The notes beneath the pieces were generated by a model. The model had not been told where the DNA came from and made no database searches. It worked only from the letters and a program-made list of their open reading frames with translations. Of a stretch of 64,000 nucleotides of DNA, positions 7,076-8,893 are shown one piece after another. The number at the start of each line of letters is the position of its first letter. Positions within the stretch are counted from its first letter, which is position 1. Origin of the DNA: Marinitoga sp. 38H-ov. Its GTDB lineage: Bacteria > Thermotogota > Thermotogae > Petrotogales > Petrotogaceae. Both the position numbers and the translations under genes were made by a program. The stretch lies in the NCBI RefSeq assembly GCF_011057715.1, contig NZ_LNGH01000053.1, positions 1 through 64,000 of the forward strand, written 5' to 3'.

Positions 7076-8893
7076 TTGAAAAAAATGCTAGTATTTACAT
7101 GGATAAATACATGGAAAAAAATATTTGGAGAAGAAAAAATTGAAGAAATAATAAGTAAAAACGGAGTAAATACAAAAGAAATGAGTTCTCCGTTAGAAAA
7201 CTTTGATGAAGTATTATTAGAAAAAATAATAAAAGAAATATCCGAAGAATTAAATATTACAAGATCAGAATTAATGAAAAAAACTGGTAGAGAAAATATA
7301 AATACATTTTCAAAATGGTATCCATTTTTCTTTAAAAAAGATGGAGCATTATCTTTTTTAGCTGCAATGGATATGACACATTTATTATTAACTAGAAGAT
7401 TAAAAGGTTTAATTCCACCTAGAATAATATATGAACCAATAAATTCTAAAGAAGCTTTTTTAACATATAAATCTAAAAGAGAGTTTTCAGATTATTTCCT
7501 AGGATTAATTCAAGGTGTTTCAGACTACTTTAACGAAAAAATAGATGTTGAAATTTTAGATAAAGGTAATGAAGATGGATTAAATTATTTAAAAGTAAGA
7601 ATCAAATCAGAAAAACCATATGTAAAAGTAGAAAAAATGCCTATATTTAATTTATTTTCATTAGGATTATTTAAATCTATGCAAGCTGTTTTTACTATAT
7701 TAATGCCAATAGTAGTATTTTTAATTTCGTGGTTGTCTTTTAATTATATAGAAAATAATTTAATAGCTGCATTAGTTACGGGTATAATTTTTTCTTTGTT
7801 ATCATATATGGGTATATTGGATTATAGGAAAGGACAAAAAATAATTAATGAAATAATAGATAATTATAAGAAGAAAAACTTTGATTATCCTGTTAAAGTA
7901 AAAGGCGCAAAAGAAATTATAGATATTACTGATAATTTTTTAGAACTAAATGATACAATGAGAGAAATTCTAATGGGAGTTACTGGTGATTTTCAAGAAA
8001 TAGAAAGTTCTGTAAAAGAAATGAGTCAATCAGCAGAAAATTCTATTGAATTAATTGATACAATGAGAGAATTAGCCCAACAAGTTGCTGATACATCTAT
8101 GCAGATTAGCTCTGATACAGAAATGGTATCAGAAGCTATTAATTCCAATGTAGAAATCTTATCAGAAATAGTAAGCAAGGAAAGACAAATGGTTAAATCA
8201 TTGAACAATTCAGTGAAAATGATAACAGAATCTTCTAAGAATGTTGAAAAATCTTCTTCAGGAATTTTAGAAATGAGTAATAGATTTAATGTTTTAGTAA
8301 AATCAGCAAATGAATTACAAAAAGAAGCTGAACAAATAAGGGAAATTGTAGAAACAGTAATGAGCATAGCAGAACAAACGAATCTTTTAGCATTGAATGC
8401 TGCTATTGAAGCAGCAAGAGCTGGAGATGCAGGTAAAGGTTTTGCTGTTGTTGCAGATGAAATAAGAAAATTAGCAGAAGAATCAAAAAAATCTGCTAAT
8501 AATATTTCAGAATTCTTAAATTCAGTAACTCAAGGTATAGGTGGCTTAACAAAACAAATATCAACAGAATTTGAAGAAATGAAAAAACAATCAGAAGAAC
8601 TAAATAAAAATTCTCAAGATAATAAAAAAGCTAGTGATGAAATATCTAATATAGCTTTAGAAATAAATGATTTAATTGAAAGATTAGAGAATGAAGAAAA
8701 GAATTTGGAAAGCACTACACAAAATATTGAAAGTTTATTAGCAATATCAGAAGAAAGTGCTGCAACCGCTCAAGAAATTAGTGCTTCTATACAAAGTTTC
8801 TTAATTAATACAAAAGAGATTTTAGAAAAGGTAAATAATATAAGTAGTTTTATTAATATTTTATACGATAATTTTGATGGAATTAATATTTAA
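7076..8893 (+). CDS. H-NOX methyl-accepting chemoreceptor, O2-type haem pocket
   Basis: Chemoreceptor with an N-terminal H-NOX haem domain (about 1-185), a transmembrane hairpin (about 200-247), then a cytoplasmic MCP signalling hairpin with its tip near 431-470 ([18 protein letters not shown]). Started at the TTG at 7076, which follows AAGGTGAT, the residues fall exactly on the numbering of the Caldanaerobacter subterraneus (Tt) H-NOX: proximal His102, Pro115, Tyr131-Ser133-Arg135 (YxSxR), and the distal Trp9, Asn74 and Tyr140 that stabilise bound O2. An ATG five codons upstream would break this register. The protein is therefore predicted to sense O2, or possibly NO, and to signal to CheA. 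It appears to form an operon with the next gene. Confidence 0.93.

What the first reader, a model, noticed from the sequence alone, without database searches (positions are those of the whole stretch)
7076..8893. H-NOX chemoreceptor with the complete O2-binding triad in identical residue register
With the TTG start, His102, Pro115, Tyr131/Ser133/Arg135 and the distal Trp9, Asn74, Tyr140 coincide exactly with the numbering of the Caldanaerobacter (Tt) H-NOX, which binds O2. An anaerobe carrying this receptor would have an oxygen-avoidance sensor. The register also settles the TTG start.
Basis: partly seen in the sequence, partly recalled or inferred. Interest (0 to 1): 0.7.

Follow-up and report, generated by a model that had tools for sequence, protein, structure and literature searches.

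The report
Oxygen-type haem chemoreceptor in Marinitoga-like anaerobe
This is a well-preserved example of a known receptor type that probably lets an oxygen-hating bacterium sense and swim away from oxygen; the surprise is that this bacterium and nearly all its relatives lack the genes to make the haem the receptor needs.

Summary
Read from TTG 7076, the 605-aa protein aligns without a gap to residues 1-187 of the O2-binding H-NOX of Caldanaerobacter/T. tengcongensis (72/188 identical). Trp9, Asn74, His102, Pro115, Tyr131/Ser133/Arg135 and Tyr140 carry identical numbers. A Shine-Dalgarno sequence and same-codon starts in relatives independently support the TTG. Tyr131/Ser133/Arg135 is the general haem clamp; Trp9/Asn74/Tyr140 is the O2-diagnostic triad.

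It is not unusual. H-NOX occurs in 46 of 103 Thermotogota genomes, and 47 of 48 proteins keep the triad. H-NOX fused to a membrane chemoreceptor is the published O2-binding class of obligate anaerobes. O2 avoidance is the best-supported function, but inferred: it is undemonstrated even for the Caldanaerobacter protein.

Ferrochelatase is absent from all 103 phylum genomes, and HemB/HemC from 99, including 43 of the 46 with H-NOX. Yet every haem-contact residue is fixed. The sensor therefore probably depends on salvaged haem, or on an unknown haem source. The protein has no cysteine, which excludes the thiol-redox alternative.

New member of a known kind, with a testable haem-supply question.

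The parts
7076..8893 (+). H-NOX / two-TM / MCP chemoreceptor gene, TTG start, 605 aa
   Evidence: (PF07700 E 2.4e-37, PF00015 E 1.5e-33)
7066..7072 (+). Shine-Dalgarno AGGTGAT, 3 nt before the TTG start
   Evidence: sequence; comparable sites before the same codon in relatives
7076..7636 (+). H-NOX domain, residues 1-187, gapless to PDB 1U4H
7100..7102 (+). Trp9 codon, distal hydrogen-bond triad
7295..7297 (+). Asn74 codon, distal hydrogen-bond triad
7379..7381 (+). His102 codon, proximal haem ligand
   Evidence: 48/48
7418..7420 (+). Pro115 codon, haem distortion residue
   Evidence: 48/48
7466..7480 (+). Tyr131-x-Ser133-x-Arg135, haem propionate clamp common to all H-NOX
   Evidence: 48/48
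7493..7495 (+). Tyr140 codon, distal O2 hydrogen-bond donor
   Evidence: 47/48
7661..7822 (+). two hydrophobic segments (about residues 196-249), predicted membrane hairpin
   Evidence: hydropathy
8288..8737 (+). MCP signalling domain, residues 405-554, with conserved tip
   Evidence: the coiled coil 309-599 matches T. maritima MCP 2CH7
8907..9710 (+). 267-aa protein of unknown family, 13 nt downstream, probably co-transcribed; follows the receptor in all Marinitoga loci
9712..9741 (.). palindrome with T-rich tail, likely terminator between the convergent orf267 and spoVS

Best explanation
The gene encodes a membrane-anchored chemoreceptor whose cytoplasmic N-terminal H-NOX domain holds ferrous b-type haem on His102, with the propionates clamped by Tyr131/Ser133/Arg135. 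O2 binds on the distal side and is stabilised by Tyr140, itself oriented by Trp9 and Asn74. Ligand-driven relaxation of the Pro115-distorted haem is passed through the two-TM hairpin to the MCP coiled coil and CheA/CheW, biasing flagellar rotation so that the anaerobe leaves oxygenated water. Haem is probably acquired from outside, because the genome lacks known haem-synthesis enzymes. Shown here: sequence, register, domain layout, conservation, and absence of hem genes. Inferred from the homologue: haem binding, O2 binding, signalling direction.
For: Gapless 38% identity to the O2-binding Tt H-NOX with all pocket residues kept. W9, N74 and Y140 in 47/48, and H102, P115, Y131, S133, R135 in 48/48 Thermotogota proteins spanning several families at 24-42% identity to Tt. 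Of 13 pocket sites, 12 are among the 23 near-invariant of 188 columns (hypergeometric 6e-12). dN/dS about 0.11 in the H-NOX domain between the two closest Marinitoga. MCP domain present, two CheA, four flagellin matches. No cytochrome bd or cytochrome b in the genome, in keeping with an anaerobe. A peroxiredoxin gene lies nearby. Published class statement: PMC8738867, PMC12329717.
Against: No ligand data. Position 5 is Leu, not Ile. Tyr140-type proteins also bind NO, and PMC9814294 states the presumed O2-sensor role is not demonstrated. The genome has no HemB, HemC or ferrochelatase, so the haem source is unexplained. The AlphaFold model is weak (pLDDT 65), so pocket geometry was not checked independently.
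Confidence: 0.75

Rival explanations
1. It is chiefly an NO (nitrosative stress) chemoreceptor. The tyrosine pocket also binds NO, and NO is the signal that matters in the habitat.
For: H-NOX with Tyr140 binds NO, CO and O2 (PMC9814294). A Clostridium botulinum homologue has been described as a highly NO-sensitive sensor (own knowledge of Nioche 2004, which PMC9814294 cites).
Against: NO-selective H-NOX proteins lack the distal Tyr (PMC12329717). Here W9/N74/Y140 is kept in 47/48 proteins of the phylum. Obligate-anaerobe MCP fusions are assigned to O2 (PMC8738867).
Confidence: 0.15
2. It senses haem availability or redox state: because the cell cannot make haem, loading of the apo-receptor by external haem is itself the signal, or Fe(II)/Fe(III) is read out.
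For: No HemB/HemC/HemH in the genome; 0/103 ferrochelatase and 4/103 HemB/HemC in the phylum, with 43/46 H-NOX genomes lacking both.
Against: Keeping the O2-stabilising distal triad would then have no reason.
Confidence: 0.08
3. It is a decaying or misannotated domain that no longer binds haem.
For: Absence of haem synthesis genes.
Against: All haem contacts fixed in 48/48, dN/dS about 0.11, intact 605-aa frame in the window and most relatives.
Confidence: 0.02

Closest known systems
Tt/Ct/Cs H-NOX-MCP of Caldanaerobacter subterraneus subsp. tengcongensis (PDB 1U4H, 1U55, 1U56, 1XBN)
   Same: Gapless residues 1-187, His102, Pro115, Y-S-R clamp, Trp9/Asn74/Tyr140, fusion to an MCP (fusion in Tt from PMC9814294)
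   Different: 38% identity; Leu5 instead of Ile5 (PDB 3NVR carries Leu at 5); different phylum; hem genes absent here (not tested in Tt)
H-NOX-MCP fusions elsewhere in Thermotogota (46/103 genomes)
   Same: About 605 aa, same start codon position, same triad in all MCP-fused members
   Different: 35-48% identity to the H-NOX domain outside the genus; the Marinitoga genomic context (adenosine-specific kinase, tRNA-Pro, orf267, SpoVS) is genus-specific in the loci examined
NO-selective H-NOX of facultative anaerobes (Shewanella, Vibrio, Nostoc, Kordia) and soluble guanylate cyclase
   Same: H-NOX fold and haem clamp
   Different: These lack the distal Tyr and work with kinases or cyclases (PMC12329717); 15-22% identity in the structural alignment

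Membership tests
H-NOX (Pfam HNOB, PF07700) | profile match over the gathering cut-off | tested here: met
   128.8 bits against 25.5
H-NOX (Pfam HNOB, PF07700) | proximal His and Tyr-x-Ser-x-Arg haem clamp | tested here: met
   H102, Y131, S133, R135
H-NOX (Pfam HNOB, PF07700) | haem bound in the purified protein | not testable with these tools
   needs UV-visible spectroscopy
O2-binding (Tt-type) H-NOX | distal Tyr140 with Trp9/Asn74 | tested here: met
O2-binding (Tt-type) H-NOX | stable Fe(II)-O2 complex | not testable with these tools
   biochemistry required
O2-binding (Tt-type) H-NOX | fusion to a membrane MCP in an obligate anaerobe | tested here: met
   PF00015, two hydrophobic segments; no cytochrome bd or b genes; anaerobic lifestyle of Marinitoga is general knowledge
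Haem-synthesising host | HemB, HemC and ferrochelatase genes | tested here: not met
   absent in the own genome (99.96% complete)
Cys/Zn redox-sensing H-NOX (V. cholerae type) | zinc-site cysteines | tested here: not met
   zero Cys in 605 aa

The most novel reading that the evidence does not exclude
Across Thermotogota, O2-type H-NOX chemoreceptors are kept under strong selection in bacteria that have lost, or never had, haem biosynthesis, so their oxygen avoidance depends on scavenged haem and may double as a readout of haem supply from neighbouring microbes.
Probability: 0.45. Interest if true: 0.55.

Novelty: new member of a known kind. Interest (0 to 1): 0.36.

Why it matters
The receptor itself extends a known class. 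The distribution data turn it into a clean test system: a conserved haem sensor in organisms without known haem synthesis. Either they import haem for a signalling protein, or they have an unrecognised haem source, or the cofactor is something else. It also offers thermophilic Tyr-type H-NOX variants with natural Leu5 or Val5 for work on haem distortion and O2 affinity.

Tried and rejected
Chance register: rejected (72 identities against at most 25 at other offsets). ATG 7061 as start: rejected (overlaps the Shine-Dalgarno region; relatives start at the TTG position). Thiol redox sensing: rejected (no Cys). HemW-type hits (TIGR00539) as a sign of haem use: uninformative, present in every genome including T. 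maritima. FecCD permeases: two matches, a possible uptake route, but the family is not haem-specific. AlphaFold with a two-sequence alignment: weak model (pLDDT 65), whose best PDB matches are nevertheless Tt H-NOX structures; the orf267 model was unusable (pLDDT 43). Tree of the domains: the Marinitoga sequences sit with Tt, apart from other Petrotogaceae (95/82), but Tt is a very long branch and no other Clostridia were available, so horizontal transfer is neither shown nor excluded. Pellicena 2004 and Wu 2015 are not held.

Full report
Observation. The open frame 7076-8893 gives 605 aa from TTG. Against the Protein Data Bank its best matches are the wild-type and mutant structures of the O2-binding H-NOX of Caldanaerobacter (Thermoanaerobacter) tengcongensis, residues 1-186/187 on 1-186/187, E 2e-40 to 4e-40. 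My own ungapped comparison gives 72 of 188 identities at offset zero and at most 25 at any other offset within ten residues. W9, N74, F78, M98, H102, P115, Y131, S133, R135, Y140, F141 and L144 all carry the same number; Ile5 is Leu. The best PDB hit, 3NVR, also has Leu at position 5.

Start codon. AGGTGAT ends three bases before the TTG. The in-frame ATG at 7061 sits at the edge of that Shine-Dalgarno sequence. Relatives start at the same codon, with ATG in the closest (L039, 87% in the domain) and TTG or GTG in several others. The start is therefore settled by more than the register.

What the residues mean. Tyr131/Ser133/Arg135, His102 and Pro115 are general H-NOX haem-site features and do not predict O2 binding. 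The O2-relevant set is Tyr140 with Trp9 and Asn74 (hydrogen-bond triad, PMC7356049). PMC12329717 states that the distal Tyr is found only in predicted O2-sensing H-NOX, that Tyr-to-Phe lowers O2 affinity in Tt, and that adding Tyr to other H-NOX gives only weak O2 binding. The triad is thus a good but not sufficient predictor.

Architecture and setting. H-NOX (1-187), two hydrophobic segments (about 196-249) and an MCP domain (405-554) are present. The genome has two CheA genes, one of them in this window at about 32.5-34.4 kb, and four flagellin matches. The gene lies between an adenosine-specific kinase and divergent tRNA-Pro on one side and a 267-aa gene of unknown family on the other, 13 nt downstream, followed by a terminator-like palindrome. 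This order holds in the Marinitoga loci. The organism is close to Marinitoga: the nearest named relative is M. lauensis, 72% in the domain.

Distribution. PF07700 is found in 46 of 103 Thermotogota genomes and in all seven of the genus. Of 48 loci, counting M. lauensis twice, 47 have W9, N74 and Y140. The only exception, L014, is a 173-aa stand-alone protein with Leu9 and Phe140. H102, P115, Y131, S133 and R135 are fixed in all. Twelve of thirteen pocket positions fall among the 23 near-invariant of 188 columns (6e-12). The H-NOX domain is under purifying selection (dN/dS about 0.11 for the closest pair; larger distances approach saturation).

Haem supply. Ferrochelatase (PF00762, which should also cover the coproporphyrin type; general knowledge) is absent from all 103 genomes, while 8 of 14 control genomes ring. 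HemB and HemC are each present in the same 4 genomes only, three of which carry H-NOX. So 43 of 46 H-NOX genomes, including this 99.96% complete one, lack the enzymes common to all known haem routes. Cytochrome bd and cytochrome b are also absent from the genome. The sensor must be loaded with scavenged haem, or haem comes from a source not recognised by these profiles. I found no paper in the held library that discusses this, but the library is incomplete.

Mechanism. Best supported: O2-sensing, presumably O2-avoiding, chemoreceptor (0.75). Residual rivals: NO sensing (0.15), haem or redox sensing (0.08), decayed domain (0.02). Haem binding, ligand preference and direction of signalling are inferred from the homologue, and PMC9814294 notes that the role is undemonstrated even there.

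Novelty. PMC8738867 and PMC12329717 describe this class, obligate-anaerobe O2-binding H-NOX fused to MCP, in general terms, and PMC9510103 lists Thermotogae among phyla with such receptors. The window protein is a new member of a known kind. The haem-supply gap across the phylum is the part worth a specialist's time.

Noticed in passing
window 30257-42461: Chemosensory-type cluster of unusual make-up: HEAT-repeat protein, CheR, CheY, CheA, ParA-like ATPase, a 473-aa Hsp70-like protein, a 644-aa MCP-type protein with two signalling tips, a triple-CheW protein, CheB and an HD-GYP protein.
   Followed up: partly
window 8907-9710: 267-aa protein with no Pfam or NCBIfam family directly downstream of the receptor in the Marinitoga loci, not found near H-NOX in other genera; possible dedicated partner.
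   Followed up: partly
L032:5001-5930 and L047: Marinitoga lauensis H-NOX receptor frame stops after about 311 residues; probably an assembly indel, since another gene (hemW-like) is also split in that genome.
   Followed up: no
L014: Stand-alone 173-aa H-NOX with Leu9 and Phe140 in one Thermotogota assembly, resembling the NO-selective type; may be contamination.
   Followed up: no
L048:4637-6457: Second, divergent H-NOX-MCP in genome G045 (31% to Tt, Met144), which also carries the usual copy.
   Followed up: no
window 6963-7038: tRNA-Pro gene on the minus strand ends 37 bp from the TTG, so the receptor promoter region overlaps the tRNA promoter; conserved in the Marinitoga loci examined.
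   Followed up: partly
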